DNA of 64,000 nucleotides, from the NCBI GenBank assembly GCA_026874595.1, contig CM049313.1, positions 35,677,159-35,741,158 of the forward strand, given 5' to 3'. The first letter of the stretch is position 1; the number at the start of each line of letters is the position of its first letter. Below are positions 35,176 to 61,682 of this stretch, one piece after another. Source of the stretch: Sipunculus nudus (lineage: Eukaryota > Annelida > Sipuncula > Golfingiida > Sipunculidae). The translations under genes were made by a program, and so were the position numbers. Below the pieces are notes generated by a model. The model did no database searches. It was not told the origin of the DNA and was given only the letters and a program-made list of their open reading frames with translations.

Positions 35176-35470
35176 AAGCCCAACACCACAACTACCCCAC
35201 ACCATGTCCAAAACCACACTAACTCCTCACCTAGTCCAACACCACACAAGTCCAACACCACTCTTACCCCACACTAAGTCAACCCCCACACAAAGTCTAA
35301 TACTACACTAACCCAACGCCAAATCAAACACCACACCTACCCAAGACCAAGTCCAACATCACACTAACCGCTCACCAAGTCCAACACCACACCAACCCCA
35401 CACAAAGTCCAACACCACGCCAACCCCAACACTTCCACTCCCAGTCTAACACACATAATCAACCCCACAC
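35176..35470 (+). repeat. C/A-rich minisatellite
   Basis: About nine imperfect units of 20-33 bp built from CCAACACCACACTAACCCCA and CACCAAGTCCAACACCACAC. The plus strand is almost free of G. The plus-strand open frame across it (Thr/Pro/His-rich) follows the repeat and lacks splice support. Confidence 0.85.
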
Positions 35471-40200: not shown

Positions 40201-40229
40201 TAAAGTGAAATACCAGTAAAGTGGGAAAG

Positions 40230-40649
40230 ATGTCAGTGCTCAACACAAGGAGGAATTCTTTAAATTCCGCAAAACGGATCAGTGTGGAACGGATTCCGAT
40301 CCAGATCCAGAGAAATAATGTTGAATCCATCGCTGCAGGCATTAACAGAGAACCAGAATTAGTGAGGCCGGTGTCTGTACAAAGTGATTATGTGAACGGC
40401 CGGACTGGTGTCAGTGTGTCATGGCTGCAACCTAGGACTTCCGGTGGGACTTCCGTTGGGATTCCGGTCATTAATGGTGGCTCTAGAAATAACAGGACCC
40501 TTCGTCGATCTGTTAAGGGAGACGCTCCCTCACCTCCATGGCGACCAGGACCAAGGAAGTCATCCATGCTTCCCATCCACGCCGACCCCAATCTCATGAA
40601 CTCCATCGAAGTTCGGTCTGTACGAGGTTCCTTGTCGGGAGATGACTCG
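40230..40649 (+). CDS. Exon 1a (start exon) of an unrecognised basic protein, 396-residue form
   Basis: The first ATG after an in-frame TGA (40206-40208) opens 140 codons ending at a good donor (GACTCG/GTAAGT), phase 0. The ATG has A at -3 (GAAAGATGT). The product begins MSVLNTRRNSLNSAKRISVE, is rich in Ser, Arg, Asn, Gly and Pro, and contains SPPWRPGPRKSS. It has no signal peptide or membrane segment and looks largely disordered. Codon use is balanced, and GC content is higher than in the surrounding introns. It splices in frame to 47262-47322, then 55491-55767 and 60897-61329: total 1191 coding bases including the stop. The exon could also be used by isoforms that skip other exons. No family was recognised. 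I see the frames and splice sites directly; the gene is inferred from them. Confidence 0.78.
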
Positions 40650-40734
40650 GTAAGTGTTCACTTGAGTGAGAGTATGTTTCCCTGTTTGATTTTAACAGAA
40701 TAAAAGATATATAACATTCTAAAGTAATTCTAAC

Positions 40735-40794
40735 GACGTCAGACACATTATCACACATAGGAAGTGACGTCAGACAGATTATCACACAGGAAGT
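40735..40794 (+). repeat. Two tandem ~30-bp units with CRE-like TGACGTCA
   Basis: GACGTCAGACACATTATCAC and its neighbour GACGTCAGACAGATTATCAC begin at 40735 and 40766, each ending CACA..GGAAGT. The second contains a perfect TGACGTCA (40765-40772). It lies 85 bp into intron 1, just after the donor of exon 1a. An intronic regulatory role is only a suggestion. Confidence 0.8.
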
Positions 40795-42458
40795 TCTCAG
40801 AAGTTCACCTGGTCATTTAGGAAAACATAAAGTGAGTAATGAAAGTATTTTAGCATTTAAAGAAGAGGATTTATTTCGCCCTACTATATGCAATGCACAT
40901 ATATCAGCAGATCATTATTTTCAGTTTCCAAACCAGAATAAAAAGTGTTTTGATTTATAATAGGACGATAATGCAAAAATAACAGGAACAGTAATAAATA
41001 AATGATGAATGAAAATGCTTGGGAAAAAATATACATGGCAAACAATGTTAATTTCATTCTTATTTGTCATAATTTGCAGTTGAGTTTGTATTGATGTATA
41101 TATAAAGTTGTCGAACCAACATTAAAATGAATAAGAATTAGGTCGAGTGCTATTAATAACGCCTTCAAGCACGTCGGGTTTATACCTTTGATTATTCTAA
41201 ACCTGTGTAAAGTTGACCTTGAGCTGTATATGTATACATTGCTAAGTTGTGTTCGAGTGAGGCCATTAAGCATTTGAAACATGGTATCGGGTTTCTCTGA
41301 ACCCTTTAATTATTTATAAGGAACCTATATAGCCAGTATGAAAGTTCGATAAAATCCGCTATTGCTATGATTCTGAAGAGAGCAACCACTAGGTATAAAT
41401 CCATTTATCAACACAGCTATATATATACACTGCCCGTATGATAGTTCGGGCTTCAATGGTGAAGTTGCTATTAAAGGTTGGGTAACAGATCGAGAGGCTT
41501 AGGGCAGCGTGTTCATAAATCCATTATCAACACAAGTACCCACAAGTATATGATAAAGGGAGCTCCGATGGTAAAAGTACTATAAGACCTAATAATGTAC
41601 AACAGCTCGAAAGTTTTAAACATGCATGTGTACAAGGATTCAAACAGTTCAACGATCCGTTACCATGTAGCGGTCTGTCAACTGAGTTGTGGCTGCCCTG
41701 TTGGTCGGCACTACACAACAGTAAAGTGTACACCAGTAAGTGTTTGTTGTGGCACAAACGGAGCATACTTATCTACGGGGTGTCAACCAGGACCAACAAA
41801 TACCCGCTAACAGGGAATTAGGGACAATCGTGAAAGATCTGTAACGGTAATCTACAGTGACAGCGTCATTATAACATGTACACAGCAGTGAGAATAAATG
41901 TTACTGAAATAATTCTTCCCGATGACACCCGTTCCATGAACAACGTGCGCAATTCTAGGTAAATTTCCCATTTATTTTTACATCGGGTCTGCTATATTTC
42001 AGAGTTTGTATATATAAGAAAAAGCAACACTTTATCGCTTTTAAAATCAGCGGGATTCGGATTCCTTGACAACATATTCACAATTAAGTATCTAAATGAG
42101 GTGCTACTTTTTATTCATGTCATGATAACAATGTGCTTAGGGGATTTGAAGCGGCCTAATCACCGATAAAGCACGTTGAATTAACACGAAAAATAGCTTC
42201 TTCTCTTTTAAATAAATTGGTACCTGCCAAAACATTGCCTTGAAACCGTTTGCTTACTTCTGTACACGAGTGTTAAAAAACAGTGGACCGAGCGCGATCA
42301 CAAACATAAACATAAACACAGCGCGTGTTGCCGTGTGCATCGCTAAGCCACAACACCTGTCAGTCATAAGATGCCCTGACAGACTTGGCCCAAATACGTT
42401 CCCGCTGGCTGAACCACCATAGGCTTGTAACCCGATACACGACCTGTACCACAGAAGC

Positions 42459-42525
42459 TTGACGTATAAATTCAGAATAAATCAATAGATTTTCAAAACA
42501 TAAACGATATATGCATCCTCAAAGT

Positions 42526-42578
<53 letters not shown>

Positions 42579-42645
42579 CTCGGAGGATGCATGTATCGTT
42601 TATGTTTTAAAAATCTACGAATATATTCTGAATTTACACGTCAAG
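42459..42645. repeat. Long inverted repeat centred on an (AT)n tract
   Basis: The left arm (42459-42527) and right arm (42577-42645) are about 69 nt each and roughly 85% complementary. They share TTGACGT.TAAATTCAGAAT on the outside and ACATAAACGATA..TGCATCC on the inside. The 48-bp (AT)n core (42529-42576) is itself self-complementary. If transcribed as part of intron 1 it would form a ~185-nt hairpin. It could be a MITE or foldback element; no target duplication was identified. Confidence 0.85.
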
Positions 42646-42825
42646 TGCCTGTGACCTGTGCTGCCCGTGTCATTTTCGCTGAGGCTGCTGCATGGACCTA
42701 TCGTCCAAACTGCTGCGATAGGTTCTACGATGATTTTACATACAGCCAATGGACCGTAATGTCCAGCCAGCAGAGATATATCAGAGGACATGAAGGTCCT
42801 TGTATGGAATAGACTAATTTGGAGC

Positions 42826-42880
42826 ACTCTTTGTTTGGGAATTGTCGCGCTTACCACTCTTTGTTTGGGATCTGTCGTGC
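42826..42880 (+). repeat. Two short tandem copies of ACTCTTTGTTTGGGA
   Basis: ACTCTTTGTTTGGGA followed by a GTCG-containing tail occurs at 42826 and 42856, period 30. Non-coding; intron 1. Confidence 0.7.
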
Positions 42881-43719
42881 ATGCGCAAAGTCGGACCTCC
42901 GGTGACGCAGTCATGTTTATTGTTAACAGACACACGTGGCCTGTGTTTACAAACATGAAAAGCCATAACAAGGTGTTAAACAGCTCATAGGGAGGTACTG
43001 AGACGTGTGCTGGGATGGTTTTGCCTGGAAACTTTTGTATAAAGCAAACGTGAACTGATAGTGTGAAAGAATATGTATATATCATTGCTCTAGAGTCTAG
43101 ATTATGTCCCTTTAAGAAGAAGAATTACATCTGATGTAAACCAATGCAAACACACAAAATCGTGTTCAAGAAATAAAATATTTCACGTCTTCCATGTGGA
43201 CATTATCAAATCGTTACTAATTTATACGTCATTATTAACACGCCAGTTATTTCCATTGTTTCCAACTGGTGGAACATCTACACTCAAAAACTACAATTTA
43301 TGACAGTTTGACGGTCACTGTCAGCTATACATGTGTATGTTTGCCCGTTAAGAGAAGCATGAAAAGTATAATAGAAGCTTAAAGTTCACTTGTTACGTGA
43401 ATGGCACCGTTAAGCAGCATACCACGTTTTACAAATGAAAATAACAAAGAGCTCAATGATTCATTGAAATTTGATAGGCTACCAGTTCAGGCGTTAAGAG
43501 GGAAATGAAATATCTTTTTATTGACATTATCGTAGCCATCTTGGACAAAATAGTGTATTGCCCAGTAACTCCCAACGAGATCTTACGGAAAAGTATCAAC
43601 CATATCTCGTTCAGAGACCCGGAGACGAGGATGTTGACCCCGCAGTCTGCTACCAAGGTCGTACGTTAACAACGCTGACGTATCTGTGAGACCTGCGTGA
43701 CAACACTTGTTTTGTTTCA

Positions 43720-43770
43720 GTGCACACGCGCCACGCGGGGGCCGTTTCTATTGGTCCCACTTTTTGTTGT
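43720..43770 (+). promoter_or_regulatory. Possible promoter of exon 1b
   Basis: GC/CpG-rich CGCGCCACGCGGGGGCC followed by TATTGGTCC (inverted CCAAT) about 190-200 bp before the exon 1b ATG. The suggestion comes from composition and position only. Confidence 0.25.
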
Positions 43771-43941
43771 TTACACTTTGTTCTTGACTCCTCATATTTG
43801 AGACTGGAATACATGTTTACCCGCCTGTTGTTTCTATAACAACTTTCCAACATGCTTTCGTCGACATGAAAATCGGCAATATGGTAAATTGTCATAATAT
43901 TTGTTGCCAATAACATAATTGTAATCACGCAAACGAATCTT

Positions 43942-43998
43942 ATGAACGGCTTACCAGCGCCACCCGGCGGAAAGCCTTGGAAACGGAAACCCAAGAAG
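43942..43998 (+). CDS. Alternative start exon 1b, 275-residue form
   Basis: An ATG preceded in frame by TAA (about 43880) with no ATG between opens 19 codons, MNGLPAPPGGKPWKRKPKK, ending at a donor (AAG/GTTAGT) in phase 0. That is the same phase as exon 1a, so either can join 47262 in frame. No acceptor site directly upstream would make it an internal exon. The AG inside it (43956-43957) would give a 41-base exon that shifts the later exons into stops. The ATG context is weak (CTTATGA). A CpG-richer stretch with GTGCACACGCGCCACGCGGG and an inverted CCAAT box (CTATTGGTC) lies at 43720-43760 and could be its promoter. The overlap with an open reverse-strand frame weakens the case somewhat. Confidence 0.5.
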
Positions 43999-44525
43999 GT
44001 TAGTTCATATTAGTGAAACATATAATTGAATTTATGTGTACAGTCACAGCCATAATAAAACACAAGTGACGATTGGATTCTTGCCAAGTAGGGAAATGGA
44101 CGGGTGGACCTGGAAATAATTATGCATACAAGCAAAAAGTAAATGTTATTGTCTAAGAATAACGCGCATGGCTATATTTATTATATATAGGCTATCAGGT
44201 TATTACATATATTTGTTCAAATGACATACTGGCCTAGAAGCAATCCCGACGTAGACTACACGTACCAGAATATACTTATTAAGATATAGTTAGTTCATAC
44301 AAGGTGAACTACTCGATGAATTATAATATATTTTCTGAAATAGTTCATTAAAAGACGTACTGATGATTCAGACGTACTGGTAATTGTTTAATTTCTCCCT
44401 CCGTGTATTGAAGTTCGAATACAAAATTTTTATTACTCCGGTTTTTTGGTACATGTAGTAGTTTTAAACTATAATTATTTTTCATAGGTTGTATAAAAAA
44501 AGTTCTGATAACTTCTGCATTTATA

Positions 44526-44890
44526 ACGGGTGTCCGTGGTCTATGGGTAAAGCACAGGGCTCAAAGCCTGGAGATCGTGACTTCGATTCTCAGCCGAGGT
44601 TCACAGTCGGCCCCCATCCAGGATAAGCGCTCTGCAGGCTTAATGGGGAGACTGTGCCCGACAGTCGTGTTTAACTCGCTCACAAACGAGTGCGCCTTTC
44701 GGGAGTTCCTTGGTGATAATGGGGATGAAATGGGTATGACGCACACCCAGAACCCGCGATTGTTGTACTTCGATCTTGGTTGGTGCCAGAATTACCGCGT
44801 GTAAGCCCATGTATGAAACAGGACTTTGCAGATGTACAAAGTACTTAGTTAAGCAAGCATTAAAAAGAGGAGGCGCTGACCTCCACCAAA
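44526..44890 (+). mobile_element. tRNA-derived SINE
   Basis: The head resembles a tRNA of about 72 nt: GGGTGTCCGTGGTCTATGGG with an A-box-like start, then an anticodon-arm-like AGGGCTCAAAGCCT and a B-box-like ACTTCGATTCTC (44580-44591). A body of about 300 bp follows that is unlike the neighbours, with GTGCCCGACAGTCGTG and GACTTTGCAGATGTACAAAG. The tRNA part is too degenerate to be a working tRNA (acceptor ends do not pair). Located in intron 1. Confidence 0.6.
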
Positions 44891-45089
44891 ACATTTTAAA
44901 ACAATTGAATTCATCTATATATGAGACCTAAGGTAATAAAATTAAAGAAGGAATAATTGCCTTATAAAACTAAAGTCTATATTTATGAGTTTGTTTTGTT
45001 ACTGTGAGTTTCGAATCTTTTCGTTCCATTTTTTTTAAATATAATTGAGAGCATTAATATTATTCTTTTTGCATTAAACCATGTTATTG

Positions 45090-45350
45090 ACACCCCTATG
45101 CTAAAGTTAAATAAAACACGGGTTTTCTTGTATATAAAATCCTAGTATAGGGCCTAAGTTGAGGATTTGGGCGTGGGTCATAAAAGGCGTTATCCGCCCT
45201 ACACTTTGCCGATACACGTCCCCTTGCCACCAAAATTTCCATACGGGTGAAATCTCGCTTGGACGCTGTCCTAAGGGTACCTTCGTGTTGAACACTCCCA
45301 TCCACCCCCCCCCCCCCCCCCCCCAACCCCACTGCGGTTGCCATTTTGCG
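45090..45350. other. GC-richer segment with 20-base poly-C; no gene
   Basis: GCGTGGGTCATAAAAGGCGT and CACGTCCCCTTGCCACC precede a 20-base C run (45305-45324). Open frames on both strands cover it but lack splice sites or starts in context. Possibly a decayed repeat. Confidence 0.3.
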
Positions 45351-45739
45351 TACACAGTAAAACTCAGATGGTACATGTCGCTTGTTGAAATTATTGCTAT
45401 ACCGCTAATATATTAAATGGGGCATTTGTCGACAACATAACGGGGTTGATTTTAGGTCAGATTTCTCTTTCACCTAAAAATTTTCCCTCCTGAAAAACTA
45501 CCATTCTATTAAGAAGAAAAAATCTTAAAACTAAAAATAATCTGTAGTGGAATAGACGTCATAGAAGTTAGCTACTCCCTGTGACATAAGTTGGGTGAAA
45601 AAAACGATACCGGTATACAAAGAAACACGCGATATATTGTATCCAGTCGCTTGAATCCTTATTTTTGGGGAAAGGGGAAGAAAGCGGTAGAGCGTAGGAC
45701 AAATGCCTGTTTTTGGAACCATTTTTGCGATACACTTCA

Positions 45740-46009
45740 TCTCCGTACGAAGTATTTATAAGGAACGACCATATACTCATTTATATAGAGCACAGTTTCT
45801 GCACGATTTCTTGATAAAATCACACCCACAAATGGTGATTCAAGCGACTGTATTCTGTCATTAAAAGGTTCAAGGACCACATCATTCTTACGCATAATCA
45901 GAAGATGGTTGCTCTGATGTCTGTCACATGGGTTGCTGCAATATATCCGTGGGTTGCTCTTGAGGCAATTTCTCATAAAAACGCGAATACCCTCCCTGAA
46001 GATTTCCAT
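45740..46009 (-). other. ATG-to-stop open frame of 90 codons, unassigned
   Basis: A minus-strand frame begins ATG GAA ATC TTC and ends CGG AGA TGA. The protein is hydrophilic (MEIFREGIRVFMRNCLKSNP at the start), with no signal peptide and no motif recognised. It lies inside intron 1 of the plus-strand gene. It may be chance or a relic of a repeat-encoded protein; a functional gene is not supported. Confidence 0.2.
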
Positions 46010-46279
46010 TATACAAATTTTGCGGCGGAGAAGTGGGACCTTAAATGGATGACTCGTTCCGTCATGGGATAAAATTTTGTTAAAGGTAAAAAGAAATGTT
46101 GGGTTTAAAGTTTGATATCACTGATGATTTAAGTCTTATCCTACATTATATTTTTTACTGTTTATGGTTATTCAGGCCCGTTAATTCTTCTGGTTTTTGT
46201 CTGCCCCTATGGAAGCATATATATAAACCAGTGATCATAACAAGCATTAAAGATTAATGTTGCTCATATGCCTACCACT

Positions 46280-46352
46280 CAAGGTCCAAGTGGTTAAGCA
46301 GTTGCACTCTATAGCGGTCAAACCATATTATTTAGCCACGGTTCAGATCGCG
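46280..46352 (+). repeat. tRNA-like relic
   Basis: CAAGGTCCAAGTGGTTAAGC resembles a D-arm with A box, and GGTTCAGATCGCG about 50 bases later resembles a decayed B box. Stems do not close, so it is not a functional tRNA. It is probably the head of an old SINE. The text after it (about 46372-46415) reads as a second tRNA-like A-box region on the minus strand. Confidence 0.4.
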
Positions 46353-47261
46353 AATAACGGACTGAATGGGTCGTGAAGTCCAGTTAGCGCGCTGACCATT
46401 ATGCCACCTCGTATGCTCATGTATGTGTATGGAGAAAAGGGACTATAGTACAAGTAGTTCACGCGAATTTAAGCGTTCTACTTTAATTTCTAAAATCCCG
46501 AGGTGGTATATAACCCATCCGTACGAGCCAAATCAAAAGAAATGCCAACAACGTGTTTACCAACCGCAGCTTTTGTGTTGAAGTAATTTAGTATATATGA
46601 CGTTGGTAACCTGCTACAATCCCATTAAGCCTTCAAGTTAAAAAAAAATTCCTTTAATTTATATCCTTCGCTTTAATCATCATGCATATATACATCATCG
46701 GTTAACTTCATTGGAAATTGACGTTTATATAACTAACTTTTCCTCGAGTAATAATTTAAAACATCCAGAGAGTAATCAGCCTCCATTTTGGTTGACAAAT
46801 TTGTGACATGGAAATTAAATCATGATACATTATTATAGAACCATAACTGCAAAGAAACTCTTACTATTTGGAACCATGTTCGGAAACTTCTATTGAACTC
46901 TGTTTTCGATGAAAAGAGAGGGCAGCTTTCAGTGAGCAGGCTAACATTCATTTAAAAGTAGGTCACATGTGATCACTAAATCAAATTAGGTTACAATAGT
47001 CATAGTCGAATGAAGTACGATCTGGGAAGGACCCGCTGCTTCCTGCATCTTGTGTCATGATGGAAAAAGTTTCTAACATACAATCAATCAACCAAGTAAC
47101 AAATCAACACGAAAAGGGGAAAATATTATACTAATATCCGGGGGGGGGGTGAGATGTAGTATTTGAATGAGTTGAAAGGGATGTACTGCAGACATTTTGT
47201 AAATTTGGCCAATATTACAATCTAGTCGCGTCACGACTAAGGAATCTCTTATATGTTGCAG

Positions 47262-47322
47262 GCCGCCGGACCAACAGATGACCACGTGGACAACGCTGAC
47301 ATGTCAACCGCAGGAATATACG
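47262..47322 (+). CDS. Exon 2 of the plus-strand gene
   Basis: The acceptor TATATGTTGCAG and donor TACG/GTACGT bound 61 bases. Entering in phase 0 (from exon 1a or 1b) it reads AAGPTDDHVDNADMSTAGIY plus one base. That base (G) and the first two bases of the next exon (AC) encode Asp. The peptide is short and acidic, in contrast to the basic flanking exons. Intron 1 is 6.6 kb from 1a or 3.3 kb from 1b; intron 2 is 8.2 kb. Confidence rests on the triple agreement of splice sites, frame and phase. Confidence 0.75.
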
Positions 47323-48039
47323 GTACGTTTTAGCTAAATCTTCAAAAAAGAAGCACATTATAATGTAGCTTTCATTTATGCAAACGAAGTAATTATTAAA
47401 CTTTCATCGTTCTCATGTATTAATGCGCAAACATTGAAGGCAGAAATGAAGTGACTTTATACGTATTGAACAAAGTTCTTTCTTAACATATAATGCATAT
47501 TCATTGTCCTTATTTAAGATTTAGAATTATAAAAGTAGCAACTTGACATTAAATGCAACAATGGAATTTAAAAGATTATTTTATTTCCTAATTGCTGATC
47601 GATTAGTGGCATGGTTTATTTAATGTATTCTTACAAACAAGTACACGTTCATCATTTCCTGTAAGGTTAATGGTCCATCTAATATTCATGAGAGGGTCAC
47701 CAAGCCCTGAGCAGGAGGTAAAGTACGAGGTAAACCAATGTTTGTAGCATAATAAAGCCCTGCCCCCGTAGGAAGAGGGGGCTCACCGGGGGTGATGGGA
47801 TTATCTCTACAGCAATATCTTGGTGAAGATAGAATAGGGGCTTTCTTAGAATCTCAAAGAGCAAAACCATTTGCCAGAATTTAATTTTTGTTTTATTTTT
47901 TCTTTTTTCTTTCTTCTTCCCGTGTTTGCGCTAAATAGGTCTCCAACACGGAGAAAACCTGATCTTTGGTCATAGTTGTGTTCCTAGGTGACAGATTTGC
48001 ACCTGATATTATATTTGTTCTTGGTCAAGGTCAAATGCC

Positions 48040-48110
48040 TCATGACGCGGGGGGGGGGGGAGGGGGGAGTTGTCGTTTGGTGGTTAAAGACATGGGGGGG
48101 GGGGGGTATA
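48040..48110 (+). repeat. Two poly-G tracts
   Basis: G-rich runs at about 48050-48067 and 48093-48106, separated by TTGTCGTTTGGTGG. Possible G-quadruplex sites. Intron 2. Confidence 0.8.
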
Positions 48111-49168
48111 TGTTTGGTAAAATGGTCAACATTTTAAATATGTGAGACACGTTGCACCGTGAATTTGGAACTGATTGGAAGTAGTCACTGACTGCACTAT
48201 ATTTTAGGAATTCACACGAAACCGAGATATATACACAAGCCATACTTTCTTACTTGGCCTATAGTAACCTTGATAAAATAAAATTAAGGAAAGATGTCTT
48301 AAATAGACAATCAAAGGTTCAATTTTGTACCTATTATATATAGTTTCACTTAAAAAATTATTTCAGCTCCAAGGGTCCGCAGTTTAGTCACCATCATGTT
48401 TGCATGATTCACTATGATCGTGTCGCACGTTTTATGATTAATATATGTCTAGCTCGCCTTTAACATTTCTGGGGATGCTGCTGGGGGACTGCAGTAAAAA
48501 GAACTTCCGGACATAGAGAGTTTGAGGACAATTTGATAAATATAAATAACGAAAACTGGCGAGTTCCGTGTACTCTAAAGGCCAAGTATACGTTATTTTT
48601 GTTTGTTTCAACGGAAACGCGGCTCCTATTTTTGTTACGTGTCAATGTTATTCAGTGAAAGATAGACCAAATCCTCGGAAATGCTGCTGTATGGTGTTCT
48701 TGCTTCAATCCTTGTAAGAAAATTACGTGTGTAAAAGGAGCACAATTTCCATTCACAAATTGAAACTTTTTGAGATGTTCATGAACAAGTAGGAGTGGAA
48801 GAAAATTTTTGTAGCCTGCATGTATAGGCTGACCACATTTCCCATATTTGTCTCTGCGCTGAATTTTGAATAATTCCCCTCGATGTCATAATTTTTTTGT
48901 GTCCACGAGGCCGTGGGACAATTTGTATTCTTTGTGTTTGACTTAAATTCAGGAACAAATGTGTACACCATATAAGTGAGGTTACACGCATCTAAGACTG
49001 AAATGGTTATCAAACTTTTGACTCAAGAATTTTGCAATAGTTTCCATGACCATTCTACAATGAAATAATCCAATAGCCAAATTAACTGATTCCCGGGAGG
49101 AATGTATCACTATTTTAAATATGACCCTAGGGTTAAGTGCAAAAACATGAAAATATAACAGTTAAAAA

Positions 49169-49172
<4 letters not shown>

Positions 49173-49215
<43 letters not shown>
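49173..49215. repeat. (AT)n microsatellite
   Basis: About 21 TA dinucleotides in intron 2. Confidence 0.97.
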
Positions 49216-49218
<3 letters not shown>

Positions 49219-51211
49219 ATATCATTATTGATAAAAAAAGGAAATTTATTGTAAAAATTAAATAAAACATACAAACCAAATAAATATACATTTCTAAACA
49301 TGTCAGCCATTATACAAGTACTCGAGTATTGATTTTCGATTCGAGTGACGGGTTGGTATCGCTCGTACATTATACTCGACGTGTAAATACTCGAGTACTC
49401 TCGGCACAGTCTCAGACGCGGACACAGTGCAGATTGTATCTGAATCAATATATTATTCAAAAGCTCTAGTTTCTTTGACCAGACACGTTCAAGGCAGAAC
49501 CAAACAGGAAATAAATCTAGAGGGGAAAAATGCCCATAAGTTTGACAAGTCTGGTTGAGGTGCAGGGCACGTGGGCCCTTCGATCTCTTCTCATGGTCGC
49601 AGCCAACTCGAGATTAGACATGGCTTGTCTGGTTTCACATTGAGTGTACACCAACAAGTCCGCCAAAATATCGGAATATTACGTTTATATTTATGGTGCA
49701 GACGAAAACATTGATGATCGAGGCACAGATTATGTTAAAGTGCTTTAGTGTTGGTTGAGAGGCTTATCTGTATGATCAGATATAATTTAAATGATATATA
49801 TCAGATTGTCCAAATATAATATTTGAATCAGACTGAAAAAATAGGCTGACGATTACCTGCTATCAAGTGGTTTCCTCTGAGTGGGTGGTAACAACCTCCG
49901 TTTATATTTTGAATCCAAAGATTAGCTGGATTTTTTTCCTTTTTGACAAGAAAAATGAATAAATTTATGAATTTAATAAGAAGCGGGGATAGACTTCTGT
50001 CTGTATAATATTATTGTCAAATAAACGTTAGACTTGTTAAGATTTTCCTGTTTTGAAGTGATAATTTTAAGACATAAATAAGAAAATTCCGTTTATCAGT
50101 GGAAAAGTGGAATTACACACTGCATGGTTACTTAAAACGAAGATTCTTGATGTATTGTAAACAAGCCACATCACAGCTGCAGAGGTGGCCCCAGAGAAAA
50201 CCAGAGAAATACTTTATATATCATTCACGCCATTTTCACGAGATTTTCTAGTCATGTACCGAGTTACTGTAACTCATGGAAATGTGTTATTGAGATGCAG
50301 GAACAACATGCAGTAAGTCATGCGCACGGGATACTAAGTCATGCGCCGTGCACACGAGGTAACATGTGAGGGAATGAAAATGTCAGGCGTATACTCACTA
50401 TAGATTTTACGTCCTGGAGAAAAGTTACTAACTCGCTGGAACGAGATACCAAGTCGTTTCCACGAATTAGTTAGTGAATCTCCATTATTTATATGCAATA
50501 CTTTGGGGCTATTCGTGTCGTTTTCATTTGGCACACCATACCACATCATATAAGATCAAAGGCTTAATACCAAAAAAAGTCAAAGACCCAGATGTAGACT
50601 TTATTATCCAACGTACTGCATGACTCGCCTGTTAATTCAGCCAGGTCCAAATAATTTCTGACCTTTTCGTTTGACTACATAATCCCAACTCCAGAACTGC
50701 CACAATATAACCAATGTAATTTTTTCTTGTATGATGTTTTGGTAGGGAGGGTTAATGAAATGCATTCTCAACGAATCATCCGGAAAACAGCTGCAGGCAT
50801 GTGAGAGTCGTTTAATACAATATACAGGCGACTAGTTAATAAGGTTATACGATTTACAAGTTAAGCCCAGGTGAGAAATTATTTGTTGTAAAGATGCTTG
50901 ATCATGGTCGTTACATGTAAAGCATATGTGAAATCATTTACCCTAATGCAATAACGTGTAGCCATCCAGTTTAAAACATTCCATTTTGTAGGAACGAATT
51001 CGCATATTACGAAAGAATAATTAATAATCATGTAAAGCATCTTAAACAGTTCCAAAAGAGGGAGGGGACAAAATCTGTACCTGCAATCTGTAATCTACTC
51101 TGTGGGAGTTGGTATCATGTTTGCTTGGTAATTAAAATATTAAAACTGAGAGCGTAAAATGACGCTAAATTGAAGCCCTTAAAACAATAATTTTGATACA
51201 GTGCTAACAAA

Positions 51212-52357
51212 TACGGTGGCTCGTATAGGACATGCACAAAATTATTTTTTATCTCGTTCCTACGCGATAGTATCTCGTTCCCACGCGATAATATCTCGTT
51301 CCCACGCGATAATTATCTCGTTCCAACGCGTTAGTGTCGCGTGGCCACGCGTTAGTATGCCATGCTAGCTTAAGCCCTCATTTGGACAAGAATGTCTGTG
51401 GTCTGTTTTATATCGAGCGTCGATGCAGCTTAAACTGTTTCTATGTATTTCGTTGTATTTGCGTTTGCGCCGAATGCTTTGAGGTAAATTTCAGCAGTTT
51501 TCAATTCGTTGGTTCAACATGTCATTGCGTTGGTTCAACTAGCCCATTTTTATTTGTTCATGGAAAACTGTATTGAGTTTGTTTTAGGGTGAGGGTGATA
51601 TAAAACCCTTGTGTACCAAACATATAAATTAAGTTGTTTGTATTTTACCTTCCCAGAAAATCTTATTTTTTAGGACTAGGGTTGGGGTTATTTAATTTCG
51701 GGTATACCGAACAGGATAAACAACATGTCGGTTAGTGTTATGTCTCAAGGGAGAAGCTTACAACAAAAGGTCTCAGCCATGCCACTTCATTATGACTGGG
51801 GGGGGGGGGGGGGGTTAAGGAGACCTTTTTACCAGAAATTTGCTCATTCTTCCCCTTCACATCTTTCTTTCTAAAATAAAACTTCAGTTATGTAATTCAT
51901 ATTATGAACATTTATTAAGACAAATATTCAACCGAACTAGCCCCCCCCCCCCCCTTTCCCCGCTAACACATTCTCTAAACAAACATGGTCCACGAGTGTT
52001 GTATGAGTCCCCATTGCATCATTCCAGGTCTAAGAATATTAAGCCCGTTCTAAATTCATGCAAATAATTGACCGTAGTCTTAATCCAGTGTCAGAAACAT
52101 GCCTTAAGGATTTAAGATGTAGGTCTTACTGTAATTGTCTATCTACATTTATTTCGTTCCCACGCGATAATTATCGCTTGGCCACGCGATACTATCGCGT
52201 GGGAACGAGATAATTATCGCGTGGCCACGAGATACTAACGCGTGGGAACAAGATAATCATCGCGTGGCCACGAGATACTAACGCGTGGGAACGAGATACT
52301 ATCTCGTGGGAACGAAATAAAAATAATTTTGTGCATGTCCTATACGAGCCACCGTAT
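51212..52357. mobile_element. Long-TIR element with internal tandem CG-containing repeats
   Basis: The left end (CGGTGGCTCGTATAGGACAT, then GCACAAAATTATTTTT) and the right end are inverted copies over about 37 bp, bounded by TA on both sides (possible TA target site). Just inside each end are direct and inverted repeats of ATCTCGTTCCCACGCGATAA and CGCGTGGCCACGCG (51250-51356 and 52150-52316). They make large palindromic subterminal regions. The ~790-bp middle has no transposase; it holds 17-base poly-G (51798-51814) and 14-base poly-C (51941-51954) runs that could pair. It looks like a non-autonomous TIR element. The superfamily is not assigned, though TA duplication would fit Tc1/mariner-type elements. 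Confidence 0.75.
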
Positions 52358-52576
52358 TACAATGCCATCAACGATGCAGACTAACTAATATGTTTGAAGG
52401 AACATATCACACACCAGGTATCTTGAGTAAACATGGTATAAAAGTTTCTCCTTGCAATAGTATGGTTCTCAATATTTCGTTCTAAAACCGATTGCTTACT
52501 CCAGGACACAAACTTGCAACAGGCAGGACTAATGGTCAGCTGGCGGCCCTACCACGCAACTTAGCAAATCAAGATT

Positions 52577-53800
52577 ATTAGCTCAGCTGACTGAAAATCA
52601 TCTGAGCTATTGCGATCACTCTTTGTTCGTCGTCTGTCCGTACGTCCATCCGACCGGCCGTCCGTTTACAAGGCACAGATCGTAACCACTGGACCTAAAA
52701 ACTTCTAATGGAATACCCATAGAGGTCCATAAAAAATGTCCTTGGAAACCTGAAATCAGGTCTCTGTTACCCATATCCTCCTAGCAATGGGGATCGTTAG
52801 TAACCCCCCCCCCCCCGAGAATAATTAAAAATTTGATACAAAAATCTCCAGTATCTGAATAACTAATGCGTTGATCGCTATGATTCTTTGCATGCGTATT
52901 TTTATGATGGAGTGTTTCATCAGTTCCTGCCACCTGTTTTTTTATTTTTTTTCCATTTTGAGACCCTATAATGAAGCGGTCCGCTAACACGACACATATC
53001 GTAATTATGGGACCTAGAATCTTCTAATTTGACATGAAGAGGGGTCCATGAAGAATCTCTTTGGACACCTAAATTAAGGTCTCTGTTACCCATATCCTCC
53101 GAGCTATGGGGCTCATATATATCCCCCCAAGAATAATAAAAAAATTTCCCCAGTATAAAATACAATAAAAATGCATTGATCGCCATGATTTTTTAAATGC
53201 ATATTAATCATGAAGTGTTTCATCGGTTCCTGCAGACTGGTGGCACCACCTGTATTTTTTTTTCTAATTTTTACGCATTTTTTCTCTATATTTGAGACCA
53301 TCAAAGGTAGCGTTCGTCCGTTAACAAGGCACACATCGTAACCGTTGGACCTAGTATATTCAAGCTTGATATCCGGAGTGGTCTATTAAATCCATGAAAA
53401 CCTGAAATCAGGTATCTGTTACCCATATACTCTGAGCTATAAGGCTCGTTAGTACCTTCCAGAATGATTAAAAATTTGATATAAAAGTTCCAGTGTCTAA
53501 ATAATTAATGCATTGATCACCATGATTCTTTGCGAGCCTCTTGATCATGGAGTGTTTCATCAGTTTCTTGAACTGGTGGCGCCACCTGTATTTTTTTCGA
53601 ATTTTTACATTTGTTTCTCTATTTTCACAATTTTTTCTATTTTGAGACCTTCATATGAAGCAGTCTGGCTGTTATTAGACCACAAACCGTTAGACCTAGC
53701 GTCTTTTAACTGTACATTCAGGGAGGTCCTAGACAAATCTCATTGGAAACCCGAAATTAGGTCAATGTGACCTATATTCTGCACGATATGTGAAAGATTA
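52577..53800 (-). repeat. Pearl-like family A element, reverse orientation
   Basis: On the plus strand it starts with the hairpin tail in reverse (TAGCTCAGCTGACTG, then ATCATCTGAGCTATTGCGAT), then a CGTC/CCGT microsatellite (about 52627-52668). About three cores follow with CCTGAAATCAGGT.TCTGTTA and CCATATCCTC at about 52765, 53080 and 53415. A poly-C run (52804-52816) sits where family A cores have poly-G. GGTGGCGCCACC is exact at 53575-53586. After 53800, sequence of the GTGACCTATATTCTG type (to about 54060) may belong to the same element. Intron 2. Confidence 0.65.
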
Positions 53801-54508
53801 TGATTTGAGCACCCTATCGGACAGATTTGCATAATTGGTTACAGTTAGAAGCTTCTTATTTGATTAAGATCCAGGGAGGTCAGTGTAAAAATTTCTTGAC
53901 AAAATGAAATAATGTCACAGTGACTTATATTCTGCAAGCTGTCTGAAAGAAAATGATTTGAGCACTCTGTTAGTCAAATTGGCACAACTGGTGGCAGCTA
54001 GATCTAGAATAAGGTCACTGTAACTTATATCTAAGGTCTATAAGCAAAATGCCTGGTTTTGAGCACTCTGTGAGTAATTTTACCCATTGTTCAAGGTTCC
54101 TGGAATTCAGCTGAGCGTCATGGACCATTGGCCATTTGTTTTTAGCTTCCAATCGTTGTTTCTTAGTTCCGTGTTTCTTCTTTTATGTTTATTCTCGTTG
54201 TTTGGAAGTTACACAGTTTATAGTTATGTTAAACAGACACAAGTGCACTGTATTTTCACAAGACTTTTGTAGCCGATTTTTCAGGTCGAATTTTTCGAAA
54301 TCGGGCCCGCAGCACCCTCACATTTAAAAGTCCTATTGATATTTCCGGCAGACAAAGAATGGGCCGGAAATTCGGTAGATAGGAGGCAGGCTGCAAAGAG
54401 TTCTGTGCAATATGTGCAGTGTCTACATATAAATGAATTTTGACGGATTACATTGTCCTTTACGGTACTATGTCAGCCCCTGCATTCATCCCTTAGAGTC
54501 ATAAACGT

Positions 54509-54880
54509 GTGTGTGTGTGTTGGGGGGGGGGGGGGGGGGCTCTTAACCACCTCCAAGTTTCACAGCCTTTAATAACATTCCATAATTTTAGATTTTTAAA
54601 AAAAATTAAATTGTCTTTTATTCTGGAGTTTTATTTGCCCAAACTGGACTTTCGTATTTATTTAGATATAGAAGTACCAGGTCCCCCATTATTTTTTGGT
54701 ATACGAGACCTAGATGTGTTGAACCGTAGTGCCCTTGTACTATATCCCCGCCAACATTGGATGATACAGATGATTCATCTCCTTTATACAACCTTCACAC
54801 GTAAATGTTTAACGGCTGAGCCTGGTCCTGCGGGCAAATACAGAAAATACCCACTGCCCCGTGGATTGTATGTCAGATGA
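54509..54880 (+). other. Open frame, possible retroelement remnant, low support
   Basis: A plus-strand frame of ~120 codons follows a GT repeat and an 18-base poly-G run (54522-54539). Its second half (DIEVPGPPLFFGIRDLDVLN) faintly recalls the region after the active site in retroelement aspartic proteases, where a PxLLGLDxL-type motif is usual. The catalytic motif is not seen, there is no ATG in context, and the match is impressionistic. It could equally be chance. Intron 2. Confidence 0.18.
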
Positions 54881-55490
54881 TGCGACGGAATGAGGCTAAT
54901 AAACCGGCAGCATCAGTATTCCCGCGGGGCTAAGTGAGCAAAGCCAAAACCTAAGGCCAAACATCTAGATTAGATTGTGTATATATGTATCTCAGATATT
55001 ATGGCTGAGAGGGCAAGGAAGAATATTAGCTGGCGATGTATTATTGATGTTGCAGTTTCGTTGTTTGGAAAATTACCAGGTATTATTTATGCGCTGCTCG
55101 GATTAATTAGTGTCTGAGGCTCTTTGGCTGGCTGCGTGTGCCCCTTGGCTTCAAGTGGTGCAGGCACTGACTGCGGATCCGGACACCTTGTCCGCTTGAG
55201 ATCATCTCCGTGGAAATCGATAAAACAGGGGCAACCCCAGCCTCAGTGACGGGATGGCGGCATAATGAATGCAGTATTGATCTGTCACGTCATATCCTTC
55301 TGTGTCTAGCTCTCTGAATATGGCCGTACCGGCTTCATTTGGTGTGTAACGCTCAGGTCTCCACCGCTTGTGCCAACCGTCCTTTTTCATCAAGCGCGTC
55401 GACCTGATTGCTCAAAGGTAAGATAAACATTTAGACTGGTGAGTTAGGTAGCATTTTTTCTCTATGGAAGATTTATATGTGCTATTTCAG

Positions 55491-55767
55491 ACGTGGACAC
55501 TGAGCATGCATATATTATGGCCCAGGCCCTGAGATCATACAAACAGCACAGAGAGAGGGAGAGTAGAAACACGCGGCGCACCCAGTCAGCGAAGAAGCTT
55601 CCAGTGTCATGGACCAGGCACTCTGGGACTATAGCCCGCAGCCCTCTCCCTTTAACCCTTAAAGGGTTTCCAACCCGTCTGTCCCGCCCCTCGCGCCCTC
55701 GCACGGCCCCTGGTCTGTTGGATGCCATTCGCGAGGTTGGTCAAGCCAATAAAATCCAACCTGTACG
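55491..55767 (+). CDS. Exon 3 of the plus-strand gene
   Basis: The acceptor GTGCTATTTCAG and an ideal donor (CG/GTAAGT) bound 277 bases. It enters in phase 1, which completes Asp from exon 2, and reads 91 further codons. It starts VDTEHAYIMAQALRSYKQHR and continues with a strongly basic Ser/Arg/Pro segment (SWTRHSGTIARSPLPLTLKG, then FPTRLSRPSRPRTAPGLLDA). It ends in phase 2 with CG, completed by A of the last exon to give Arg. GC content is clearly above the flanking introns. The N-terminal part may be helical (HAYIMAQALRSYKQHRERES); the rest looks disordered. Function unknown. Confidence 0.8.
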
Positions 55768-57210
55768 GTAAGTCCTGCACTGCAGCATGCAATGTCAAGC
55801 CATATTTGCCCTGGTGGTTCTGGCATCGCATATGCTTCTACTAGAGCTCTGCTTTATGCTTTATCTTATGATAGATACCTCCCTGTCTTGCTAGTTTACA
55901 TATTACAGAGGTAATTGAGCCGTGGGATTACCACATGTTCCATAAGTGTCTCCTAAGGAATTTGATGCATACATTGTGTATCAGCGTGTAGATAATAACC
56001 TCAAATGATAAACGTTCTACATATAGGTAACAACAAATGGCATTACCCTTTCAAAAAAGCTTAACGCAAGGGGCTATTCACAATGAATAAACACCAAACA
56101 GAAGAATATTCAAATTATATTTTAAGTAATTTTTTTTTATTTACATAATTTAAATGCTACTTTATATCGAAGAGAATTATGAAATTCAAATAGTTACAAG
56201 AGTTCTTTATAATGAAAAAAGAGGGAAACTGTCTTCAATTAAGGTAAAGCTCATTGGTATTTAATGTATTACCTTGGGTGTCTACTAGCCGTCTTGAAAC
56301 TGACGCCTCATTCCTGTGTCCTTTTCTACATTTATAACAAATGGTCGTGTTTGTTTAGACGTTTATGGTATCATTAACATCATTACCGAATCTATTCAGT
56401 TTAACGCAAATATACACACACACACAATCCAATAATTACAAATTAAAAATTGATGGCCATGGGTAACATAATTTCCAAAAGGTGCAGACGCATATATACC
56501 ACACACTTGTAGTTCACTATAAAAACTATAATATACACACAACTATAAAAAATATCACGAAGGCATGGACTTCTATTCACACTTTAAATAAGGTAAAATT
56601 CTGTGTCTATGATTAGATTACGAAAGTGTGAATTCTTACATTCTGAAAGCTGCATTGTTAAACTTTAAAGACAAAAAGTTAGTTACATGTGTTCAAAATG
56701 ATCTTCCGTGTTAAGTTCTAATGATAAACTTCAACTCAATTGCTTACATGCTGTAAATGGGAAGGATGACATTTTAATCGTTTCGCCGTTCAGCGTCTAT
56801 TGGAAAATTTTCATTCCGGTCACGAAATAAGGTCACTTCATTTTCCGAAATTCTTAATATTCCCAGCTCCAAGCAAACCAGAGCAATAAAATTTTAAAAT
56901 TCAAGATATGGTTGCCGTTCACTATCGTATGACCAGTTTTGAAGGTGAAATTAACAGTGGATTTATTGAAAAATACATCCTTTGCAATCATGAACGCAAC
57001 TTCAAATACTGTGGTTGGCTTTATATTCGCGTGCCTGAAATTTCGCAATTTCATTTTGAATGTTTCGGGATGGCTTCATTTTCTCAATTTCACAAGAATC
57101 TATAAAATTAAGTACAATAGTAATTGTATGTCTTATAAAAGATGAATAATACCCACGTTACCTCTTCACTTCTAATACAGTAATTATATTATATATGATA
57201 TGTGTAACAG

Positions 57211-57310
57211 TCAGGGTTGGTTTTCTTCCGGAAGAAATGTATTTCTTCCGAGACAATGGAAGAAATTTGTAGGAAATGGGGTTTCCTCCACTTTCTTCCG
57301 GAAGTATTGG
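57211..57310 (+). mobile_element. Terminus of a hAT-like element with TTCTTCCGGAAG palindromes
   Basis: CAGGGTTGG is followed by TTTTCTTCCGGAAGAAATG, TTTCTTCCG and CTTTCTTCCGGAAGTATTGG. CAGGGTTGG plus repeated TTCCGGAA-type sequence is a common style of hAT terminus. The opposite end (CCAACCCTG) was not found downstream, so this is a fragment or a chance match. Confidence 0.35.
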
Positions 57311-60300
57311 ATGAAAGTGGAATTTAGTGGACAGTAAAAATGATAGTGTGATTTACAAAAATCAAAACAGATATTTGAACTATTTTTATTTCATTTGAAT
57401 AAAATAAAACAATATGACTTTAATCAGTGTACAGGAACACTGATTTATCTAAATATAATTTTGTTTGTTTTATGCTAAAAGTTTTGCCCAAATTGCAGCT
57501 CATAGATTTGTATTTCAACTATTTAAGTATGTAGTGTTGCTTAGTATGTGTTGACGTGTAAAAAGAGATTTAGTGTGAGCCTACATTGATACCTCCGCCA
57601 GTATTCTTATCAAACTTTCCTCTGCTCTACCATGCAGTATAACGGCTCACTACAACGCTTCACAGGTGAACTCAAGAGTAATTACGACACCTAATACCAA
57701 TGAATTAATTGGCACCGTGCTCGGTCCGGAAAAATAAATTACCTTATCTCAATTGAATAATATACACTGAATTCAAATACATGATGGTGGTCCAGTTTAC
57801 ATCCAAATCTAATCTCTGATTCCTTCGGTCATGTCCTAACCCCCCAAAGACCACAATTTCATCCAAATTATTTCATACTATAGTAACGCTTTCAGAAAAC
57901 ATGCTAACTAACAAACCTACCATCCATTTCCCGACCAATGAATCTCTTCCCTTCTGGCTGACCAAGATGTGTTAACTCTCACCTTACCTTCTGCTAATTT
58001 ATGGAGAAGGAGATTGCTTTGCTAAAGCGGGAAAGAATATTCCGGATTTCATAAAAAGTTGATGTGGATGGCATTGCTTAATATATGTCAAGATTCATCC
58101 TTAAACCGGATGTATCTATATGCTGTGTTTCACCACTCCATGCCCGTGCACGTGTTTTATTTTAGAGATAATTTTCTTAAAAAAATACTTTTTTTTTTAT
58201 AATTTCATAGGAAACTGCACATTTGAGTGACAACCTCGTATGGGAAGATGGCAAAATACGATCATGATAGCACAAGTTATCACTACAAGTTATCACTATA
58301 TACTTTAAAGAGACTTCCCAGTGATTTTAAAGCAGATGATATGCCTCTCTCTAAATTCGTATAGTCATCTTCCTTTTTTAGCTGGTATTAGGTATCATCG
58401 TAAAGTTATAGCAACAGTTAGATGTCCAATGAATATAAATCGAATGCCATCGGTGTGGTTGATATATTGTAAAACGATTTTTTTTTTATGCAGATAAACG
58501 GGAATTTATAAATATTTTAAAGGTATTTCACTTCTTTGTTATAGCTTATATAGCCAATCAACGCCGGATAAATCATTTAACCGCGGGATCACGTTTGTTC
58601 ACGGTACTAATAAGGGTCACAAGATCATTATGAATATAAATATATATGTTTTCAGTGACATGCTTCTGTCAGGTGTTACTGGTCAAAGTATTTTTGCTGG
58701 GAGAGGCATTTATTTAACAAATGGTATTAAGAAACTAAAGAAAAGAGGGAGAGAAAGTTTGGTAAGTCCGATATGCGAGCTAGGGAGCGAAACGACCGAG
58801 TTAAGGGGTGGGAGAGTGAGGGCCCTAGTTGAAACCGACCTAGTTGAAACCATCCATGTTACTTTAGCTTACAATTTTACTATAATATAGTATTTACAGT
58901 TCCTGAAAAAAAGTTTGTATTTTTTTTACAGATCTGTGTCGTTTATATAATGAACTGGTATTTGTTAATACCGTGCATGTAGATAAGGATTATGTTGTCA
59001 AGTATGACAACTGTCATGTATCCACAGGCTGCTATTATGCTTAGTGGGAAAAAAGTGGTTTCCAATCTCCTCTTCTGTACTGGAATTTTTTTTAAGTTTA
59101 AAAAATTTTTTTTTTTATTTCTTCTTTGAAAATTAAACTTGAAAGTTTTGCTCGCCGCAAAAAGGGAGATTGCAGTTCGGACCCCCTTGACCCCCCTATC
59201 TATTAGTAGCCAGGGTAAGCAAGCCCCACACTGACATTCACACTAAGATTGCACAATTTTGACTTCCTACGTTTTGTTGACATTTATTAAATCGATTTTG
59301 ATTTACTTATCGTTTATATCCAAATTTACAATGCGCAATCCAACTGCCCGATCTTCTGCAGCCTTTGGTGTGAAATCAAATGCTCACGAGAAATTAATTA
59401 AAACCAGACAATCATTGTAAACAACATCGAGGCTAGGCTTTCATGTAAACGAAATCCTATAAGATACATCTGTATAAGGACTCAACTATAATCGTCGTTG
59501 TACTGAGCCAACACGCAGTCCAATAGACCACATGAACACTATGACGAGATTTTTTTTTTTTATTTCAGTTGTGTTTCAAGAAGTGCATGTGCACACGCAG
59601 AATTTATTACCGGATTGAAGAGAAAATATTATACATTTCCAAATCGGATGGAGTTTGCTCCTTTGTTTTAGAATATTGTTTGCTCTCTCTTTATATACGA
59701 TCAGTCAAGCTCTAAGATAAAAATGTACGGTAATTGCATAAAGCATGGGGATATGGAAACTGACATCGCAACCTGAACAAAATGGTAACGCAGAGCGTAT
59801 GTAGCGCCACCTATATATTATTTCCTGTATCTCGTGTTCGCTTTGCAGGAAGGCTTAAATAGGGATTTCCATGCAATTATTGTGTAGAATTAAGTCAAAT
59901 CCCTGCTTAAGTCCAAAATATAGCATTTATGATCATCTGGAATTATCCAACACACCCAGTTTACAGAGAAAATCAATATTGTTTCATGATAAGTACGAAT
60001 ACCATGAAAGTCAGTACTTATACTCAATTATACAAATCAGACCGTTGCAGCATTTGCTTTTTTTTAACGCAACTGCAAAATTAAAGAATAATAAGTTGTA
60101 CCTCAACATTGTGTAGATAAGATATGCGAGATTTCTGATAAATATTACAGTAGCAAAAGTAATAAAAACAAAATGCCAGTAACCGAGTATATTAAAATTT
60201 ACTTGTTTTGTAGATTACCTATACCCGCTGTAATTGAAAGAAAATTAAAATTATGTTAAGTAAAACTAGTATGTCTTTAATGAATTATGCCATTCATAGT

Positions 60301-60340
60301 GAATACTTGTCAGATCTGCGCATGGACCCAGTAATGTCCG

Positions 60341-60455
60341 TGACGTCATGTTTACGTCGGTCCCACGCCGTCATCAGATGGCTGACTGTGGGCGCACGTG
60401 GGCCCTCTCCTGTCCATGTCGGGCCCACGCTGGGCTGACTGTGGTATATAAAGGT
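60341..60455 (+). promoter_or_regulatory. Possible internal promoter: CRE plus TATA box
   Basis: TGACGTCA (60341-60348) is followed by CpG-containing sequence with CACGTGGGCC and GGGCCCACGCTGG, and by GGTATATAAAGG (about 60442-60453). It lies 450 bp before the last exon, whose ATG at 60940 (CCAATGGCGG) could start a short C-terminal form of 129 residues. An alternative is that this is the end of a repeat. Confidence 0.3.
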
Positions 60456-60896
60456 TGCCATCATATGGGCTTGCCACTGACGCCTCGTTGGTACCACGTG
60501 TGTTTCATTTATTTCTGCACTTCTTTCACTAAATATTATTTCTTGCTTTGTCACGCTTAAAGCACTCTATTTCTATAATTCAAGTTGAACGAAATTTTAG
60601 TTAAAAGGGTGAATTAATGTAAAGTGGATAAGAACTCAAGGTCTAGGCCTTCTTGCTAGATTAATGTTATGCACTATATATGTTTGGAGAATTAAAACAC
60701 AGGTTCGATACGTCTTGATAAAATATGGATAATATTGATATCCAATATTGGTGACTTGCCTCGGCTAATTATAGGAGTATAGTACATATATCTGTTTCTA
60801 CCGCTCTGATTGTGTAAAGCAGTAAACTTTTTATACTATATACATATACTTATGTAGAAGCAAGACAGATCATTCAAATATCTGTTCTCCTTTCAG

Positions 60897-61329
60897 ATTT
60901 CCACGGCACACCCTTCACAAGACCACTCTCAAAATACCAATGGCGGAGAAAAAGGTCAAGATTGTCAGAAGTAATAGTGAAAAAAAGCCAAAAAGAGAGA
61001 GAAGAGATGCTTCCGGGGACCGGTACAATTTCGATGGTGGATTCTTTAATACCGTTCATTCACCTAGAAAACAATGTTTTACAATACACCCAGACTGGGT
61101 TTCGGAAAATCTCAACGTGCAAAAAATTAGCATACATGATAGGAAGTCTAGTAGTAATGTATCCTACATATTGCCCCATATGCACAAGTCAGCAACTTTT
61201 CCCGGGCGGAGGTGTAAAAGTGCGCCCCCACCGCGAATCAGGAACCCTATCACTTGGGAGGGTTGGGAGGTCAAAAGTTGGACTCCGCCCCCACGAAGCA
61301 GAAATCCGATCACGTGGGAGAATTGGTAA
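60897..61329 (+). CDS. Exon 4 (terminal) of the plus-strand gene, with duplicated PPPR.RNPITWE.W motif
   Basis: A strong acceptor (TTCTCCTTTCAG) opens 433 bases to TAA (61327-61329). The first base completes Arg from exon 3; then come 143 codons. A basic cluster KKPKRERR (residues ~282-289 of the 396-residue form) could be a nuclear signal. The middle has CFTIHPDWVSENLNVQKISI. The last 34 residues hold PPPRIRNPITWEGW and PPPRSRNPITWENW, period 20 residues, ending at the stop. The other two frames hit stops or do not fit the phase. No enzyme motif, signal peptide or membrane segment is visible. Short aromatic/proline C-terminal repeats with KSAPP-type sequence are reminiscent of cytoskeletal or ciliary proteins, but that is only an impression. 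Confidence 0.8.
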
Positions 61330-61682
61330 CCAATCAGCAGCCCCGTTGTCAGACCCGCTATTTCTCCCGAGAATGTGACGGAGGTGCCATTTCCGCACTG
61401 TTTCGCTGATGTTTACGCGTGCTTGAATTGAAAGCGAGGCTTCATTTGAAAGATAACTGGATTGTCGATATAAAAAGTTGGTCGGTATCTTGATAAAAAT
61501 TAAAACAGGTGTTCTTGGGAGGGAAAATGGGTTGGTAGAGGAATACAGCACATCATGTGAGCGTTCGTACCACAACCTACTAGTCTGATGTTAATCTGAA
61601 CCTGACGATGAAAACATGGAGTACATAAAGCAGCCGTGCCTTGCAATATCATCTTAAACAAATCCAAGAAGACTCTAGAAGG

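What the first reader, a model, noticed from the sequence alone, without database searches (positions are those of the whole stretch)
40230..61329. Unrecognised plus-strand gene with fully phase-consistent exons
Four exons with good splice sites join in phases 0, 1 and 2 without a stop into a 396-residue basic protein. I cannot place it in a known family. In a region otherwise filled with repeats, such agreement is unlikely by chance.
Basis: partly seen in the sequence, partly recalled or inferred. Interest (0 to 1): 0.75.

Follow-up and report, generated by a model that had tools for sequence, protein, structure and literature searches.

The report
Unfamiliar four-exon animal gene, probably real
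A stretch of a large animal genome very probably holds a genuine single-copy gene, split into four exons, for a basic, probably floppy protein that matches no protein family I could search; such genes are common and this one's job is unknown.

Summary
The four stretches have GT/AG borders and join in phases 0, 1 and 2 into 396 codons plus TAA. A search of all four-exon chains recovers this model as the longest on the + strand; none of 100 whole-window and none of 2 x 300 block-wise shuffles reaches its length. Two C-terminal copies of a PPPRxRNPITWExW segment differ at 12 of 51 aligned bases but only 3 of 17 residues, as expected if this frame is translated. Each exon was found once in the 1.43 Gb genome; intron 2 holds a high-copy element. 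A real spliced gene is very likely, though chains with extra exons can be drawn and no transcript was seen.

It is unplaced: no Pfam, NCBIfam, PHROG or credible PDB match. No animal proteome could be searched. The protein is basic (computed pI 11.1); exon 4 alone gives a structureless model. A disordered, perhaps microtubule-associated adaptor is a weak guess (about 0.2). An ordinary kind of gene; modest interest.

The parts
40230..40649 (+). Exon 1, coding, ATG start, 140 codons, ends in phase 0
   Evidence: Open frame closed upstream (stop-to-stop ORF begins at 40209); donor G|GTAAGT rank 27 of 3480; one match in the genome
47262..47322 (+). Exon 2, coding, 61 nt, ends in phase 1
   Evidence: TGCAG| acceptor rank 43 of 3548, G|GTACGT donor rank 59 of 3480; one match in the genome, E 9.5e-4. 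The weakest part of the model, because it is short
55491..55767 (+). Exon 3, coding, 277 nt, ends in phase 2
   Evidence: TTCAG| acceptor rank 248 of 3548, G|GTAAGT donor rank 12 of 3480; one DNA match in the genome
60897..61329 (+). Exon 4, coding, ends with TAA
   Evidence: TTCAG| acceptor rank 48 of 3548; one match in the genome
61216..61326 (+). Tandem C-terminal protein repeat KSAPPPRIRNPITWEGW / KSWTPPPRSRNPITWENW (copies start at 61216 and 61273)
   Evidence: 12 nucleotide but only 3 amino-acid differences over 17 aligned codons; a DNA pattern for its core (RNPITWExW) has exact matches only at these two places in the genome
61499..61504 (+). ATTAAA, possible polyadenylation signal 170 nt after the stop
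   Evidence: Pattern match only, one of three such hexamers downstream in the window; not tested

Best explanation
A genuine, single-copy, spliced protein-coding gene of an animal nuclear genome. Four coding exons spread over 21 kb, with introns of 6.6, 8.2 and 5.1 kb (intron 2 holds a high-copy repeat element), encode a 396-residue protein of 44.6 kDa and computed pI 11.1, rich in Arg, Ser and Pro. Shown: the open, phased structure beyond chance, exons found once in the genome, and a pattern of change in the C-terminal repeat that fits selection on this reading frame. Inferred: that it is transcribed and spliced as drawn. Inferred and weak (about 0.2): that it is a mostly disordered adaptor whose paired C-terminal PPPRxRNPITWExW motifs dock on a partner and whose basic stretches bind an acidic surface, most plausibly microtubules of cilia or sperm tails, with DNA or RNA in the nucleus as the alternative. 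The confidence given is for a real gene built essentially on these exons (it includes the variants of the first rival), not for this role.
For: Model verified base by base. Best 4-exon + chain in the window and in the window plus 60 kb of flank; 0 of 100, 0 of 300 and 0 of 300 shuffles match it. Repeat: 12 nt but 3 aa differences; 46 of 200000 simulations of 12 random substitutions gave 3 or fewer aa changes (P = 0.00023), and the other two + frames differ at 10 and 11 of 16 residues. No paralogue or retrocopy found: 4 matches of 5 candidates, the four being these exons. CDS G+C 50.5% against 37.0% for the window and 44.2% in 27 kinase-domain stretches of the same genome. Exon 4 folded alone without an alignment: 142 of 143 residues below pLDDT 50. 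Computed net charge at pH 7 +34.6.
Against: Synonymous codon usage does not favour the used frame over other frames, although it does not single out 27 known kinase stretches either. The splice matrices are generic and recalled, and the first thresholds were set at the model's own weakest sites; at stricter thresholds no 4-exon chain remains. With more exons allowed, chains of 1200 nt (5 exons) and 1230 nt (6 exons) that replace part of exon 1 by upstream pieces exist at the same thresholds; in the extended region a 6-exon chain of 1341 nt runs from 55517 beyond the window; with looser sites chains of 1500 nt (5 exons) and 1554 nt (6 exons) read exon 4 in another frame (all). Shuffles were compared for four exons or two to four, not more. 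The internal repeat was noticed after the fact, and one antisense frame also keeps it fairly well (4 of 16 residues differ). A low pLDDT without an alignment is weak evidence for disorder.
Confidence: 0.86

Rival explanations
1. The gene is real but its exon set differs: an additional exon (for example 58545-58807, which puts exon 4 in the other open frame ending at 61378) or further 5' exons are used.
For: With looser site thresholds, chains of 1500 nt (5 exons), 1554 nt (6 exons) and 993 nt (3 exons) include 58545-58807; at the model's thresholds chains of 1200 and 1230 nt add upstream exons. A second open frame overlaps exon 4 (ORF 60818-61378).
Against: The chains with 58545-58807 in the window need weaker splice sites and put exon 4 in a frame in which the repeat copies differ at 10 or 11 of 16 residues instead of 3 of 17; the upstream additions gain only 12 and 42 nt.
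Confidence: 0.12
2. A chance chain of open frames, or a decayed pseudogene or non-coding transcript with good splice sites.
For: No homologue found in the libraries searched and codon usage gives no support.
Against: 0 of 700 shuffles in three sets reach its length (100, 600); no stop inside the joined frame; protein-level constraint in the internal repeat.
Confidence: 0.08
3. A transposon- or virus-derived coding sequence caught between repeats.
For: The region is rich in repeats; intron 2 holds a high-copy inverted-repeat element.
Against: Each exon was found once in the genome, the model carries three introns, and there is no Pfam match; PHROGs, which covers viruses of bacteria and archaea only, gave none for exons 1, 3 and 4.
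Confidence: 0.03
4. As for role: a nuclear basic protein (chromatin, sperm nuclear or RNA binding) rather than a cytoskeletal one. This competes with the role, not with the gene.
For: Computed pI 11.1, basic residues in excess in exons 1, 3 and 4; an NLS-like KKPKRERR run in exon 4 (sequence; the NLS label is recalled).
Against: The Trp-containing paired motif is not a feature I know from such proteins (recall); no test was possible.
Confidence: 0.2

Closest known systems
Trochin and lophotrochin (spiralian-restricted ciliary-band genes, Wu et al. 2020, PMC7441323; outline with abstract, and passages)
   Same: Protein motifs with no recognised counterpart outside a clade; trochin is reported there to have no detectable similarity to any non-spiralian gene or domain
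   Different: No sequence comparison could be made; I saw no letters of these proteins in the passages. Whether this gene is spiralian, conserved or ciliary is untested. Only the kind of situation is alike
Lineage-specific (orphan) genes as a class (PMC7660931; title and start of abstract seen in search listing)
   Same: An intact gene without recognised relatives; that listing says essentially every lineage has such genes, and the title says many can be explained by failure to detect homology
   Different: Lack of relatives was tested only against Pfam, NCBIfam, PHROGs, PDB and its own genome, not against animal proteomes
KCNQ3 channel construct 5j03 (best PDB sequence match)
   Same: Residues 159-243 align at E 0.012
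   Different: An isolated weak match that includes what looks like a cleavage tag of the construct (recalled); taken as chance

Membership tests
Lineage-specific (orphan) protein-coding gene | Genuine intact coding sequence | tested here: met
   Phased 396-codon chain beyond shuffles and frame-specific conservation of the internal repeat; no transcript evidence
Lineage-specific (orphan) protein-coding gene | No detectable homologue outside its clade | tested here: inconclusive
   Whole protein: no Pfam family, no credible PDB match. Exons 1, 3 and 4: no NCBIfam match better than E 0.18, no PHROG. No proteome or genome of another animal could be searched
Transposable-element or retrocopy-derived gene | Multi-copy sequence, element domain or intronless copy | tested here: not met
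   One match per exon in the genome, three introns in the model, no Pfam domain
Ciliary or axonemal microtubule-associated protein | Expression in ciliated cells or sperm and localisation to axonemes | not testable with these tools
   No expression data; no credible sequence match among solved PDB chains
Spiralian ciliary-band genes (trochin, lophotrochin) | Sequence similarity to the published proteins | not tested
   Their sequences were not compared; for lophotrochin an N-terminal similarity to DUF4476 is reported and no Pfam family matched this protein, which speaks against lophotrochin

The most novel reading that the evidence does not exclude
The founding member of an undescribed family, conserved within molluscs or spiralians, marked by a paired C-terminal PPPRxRNPITWExW motif that works as a docking site in cilia or sperm tails.
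Probability: 0.25. Interest if true: 0.4.

Novelty: new member of a known kind. Interest (0 to 1): 0.25.

Why it matters
It shows that a gene with long introns in repeat-rich DNA can be read from raw sequence alone, and adds one probably intact, uncharacterised gene with a distinctive paired motif that could be followed in related genomes. Genes without known relatives are common, so the importance depends on conservation and expression data not available here.

Tried and rejected
Codon usage: one search listed 135 kinase-domain matches in the same genome and gave 30 loci (L007-L036). I trained on 27 of these 30; L012, L025 and L033 were left out beforehand because one search counts a stop inside each. 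The model did not separate the used frame from the others; the 27 left-one-out stretches score -0.045 to 0.116 per codon and this CDS 0.031. Rejected as uninformative.

PDB matches to KCNQ3 (E 0.012) and COP9 subunit 1 (E 0.34 to 0.51) are weak and taken as chance. One NCBIfam match, E 0.18, rejected.

Ten other long open frames of the window were scanned against Pfam up to E 1: two weak matches, none over a cut-off. No tRNA gene (bacterial-code setting) and no Rfam family at gathering score in the window.

Pattern search for the motif core: 15 matches with up to 2 mismatches, 2 of them exact and both in this gene; 13 have two mismatches, against 7 matches of the reversed control pattern. I did not examine those 13.

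Structure of exon 4 without an alignment gave no usable fold, so no fold search was made and the second structure job was not used.

Literature: the string RNPITWE is in no held paper.

Full report
Observation. The four exons are present exactly as given. They total 1191 nt (396 codons plus TAA), with lengths 420, 61, 277 and 433, canonical GT/AG borders and junction phases 0, 1 and 2. Upstream of the ATG the frame is closed, since the stop-to-stop ORF begins at 40209. On generic splice matrices recalled from memory, the donors rank 27, 59 and 12 of 3480 and the acceptors 43, 248 and 48 of 3548 on the + strand.

Chance. I searched chains of phase-compatible exons, starting at ATG and ending at a stop, for the longest CDS. 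With thresholds set at the model's weakest sites, the best four-exon chain on the + strand is this model, 1188 nt before the stop. The minus strand gives 426 nt with introns up to 10 kb and 648 nt with introns up to 12 kb. Whole-window dinucleotide shuffles: 0 of 100 reach 1188 (max 717). Shuffles within 500-base blocks, which keep local G+C, counting chains of two to four exons: 0 of 300 (max 834) at these thresholds and 0 of 300 (max 1017) at looser ones, where the real minus strand gives 702. Adding 20 kb upstream and 40 kb downstream of real sequence leaves it the best four-exon + chain; the minus strand there gives 705 nt.

What the chain search shows against the exact model (all). The first thresholds favour the model by construction, which is why looser ones were run. 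At stricter thresholds (4.8 and 3.7) no four-exon chain exists on either strand of the window; exon 2's donor and exon 3's acceptor (scores) fall below them. With five and six exons at the model's thresholds, chains of 1200 and 1230 nt arise by adding upstream pieces and shortening exon 1, and in the extended region a six-exon chain of 1341 nt runs from 55517 out of the window. With looser thresholds, chains of 1500 nt (five exons) and 1554 nt (six) add 58545-58807 and read exon 4 in another frame. Shuffles were not run for five or six exons. So the gene is well supported, its exact exon set less so.

Selection on the frame. The last 37 codons before the stop contain two copies of one protein segment, KSAPPPRIRNPITWEGW and KSWTPPPRSRNPITWENW (one extra W left out of the alignment). 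They differ at 12 of 51 bases, 8 of them at third codon positions, and at 3 of 17 residues. Twelve random substitutions give three or fewer amino-acid changes in 46 of 200000 simulations (P = 0.00023). In the other two + frames the copies differ at 10 and 11 of 16 residues; one antisense frame does better, at 4 of 16. The repeat was noticed after the fact, so the P-value is indicative. It supports this frame over the competing open frame in exon 4.

Copy number and surroundings. Searching the 1.43 Gb genome with the protein gave four matches of five candidates, the four exons themselves; exon 3 as DNA also matches once. No paralogue or retrocopy was found, at that search's sensitivity. By contrast a 151-base piece of intron 2, from an inverted-repeat element, has 123 matching pieces from 40 scored of 936 candidates (some places count more than once). 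The CDS is 50.5% G+C against 37.0% for the window.

What it might be. There is no Pfam match for the whole protein at a limit of E 10, though HMMER's filters drop most matches above about 0.1. Exons 1, 3 and 4 scanned apart give no NCBIfam match better than E 0.18 and no PHROG match up to E 1. PDB matches are weak, the best E 0.012 to a KCNQ3 construct. The protein has a computed pI of 11.1 and net charge +34.6 at pH 7. Exon 4 folded alone gave mean pLDDT 36, compatible with disorder but weak because no alignment was available. A DNA pattern for the motif core has exact matches only twice in the genome, both here. I propose an intrinsically disordered basic adaptor, perhaps on ciliary or sperm microtubules; this rests on composition and on general knowledge that such proteins are often basic and rich in short Pro/Arg motifs (recalled), and I give it about 0.2.

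What gave no support. Synonymous codon usage trained on 27 kinase-domain stretches of this genome cannot tell the frame, for this gene or for the kinases. There is no transcript, no orthologue and no animal proteome in reach. The species and the mollusc label were not established.

Known context. Clade-restricted genes are common: the listing of PMC7660931 (title and start of abstract seen) says so. A published spiralian example with no similarity outside the clade is trochin (PMC7441323, outline with abstract, and passages). No held paper contains the string RNPITWE; that says little about the gene. Verdict: real gene very likely, ordinary kind, family open.

Noticed in passing
window 51210-52358: An element in intron 2 with perfect 40-base terminal inverted repeats and 116-base, 86% complementary arms made of 21-base units such as TATCGCGTGGGAACGAGATA; a 151-base end piece has 123 matching pieces from 40 scored of 936 candidates in the genome, up to 97% identical outside this locus. 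It looks like a non-autonomous DNA transposon.
   Followed up: partly
window 52657-54002 and 3135-3635: Units repeated at 319-349 base spacing in intron 2; by eye they resemble, on the opposite strand, the 253-base tandem repeat at 3135-3635.
   Followed up: no
window 42450-42653: A palindrome of two 102-base arms, 87% complementary, with no spacer, centred on an AT run in intron 1.
   Followed up: no
window 18747-18890 and 24887-25030: Two arrays with 77- and 28-base periods containing TGCGATCGCA, of equal length (144 bases) and equal score, 225.
   Followed up: no
window 35176-35432: Degenerate tandem array of CCACACC/GTCCAACACC-like units with periods of 17, 28, 44 and 45 bases.
   Followed up: no
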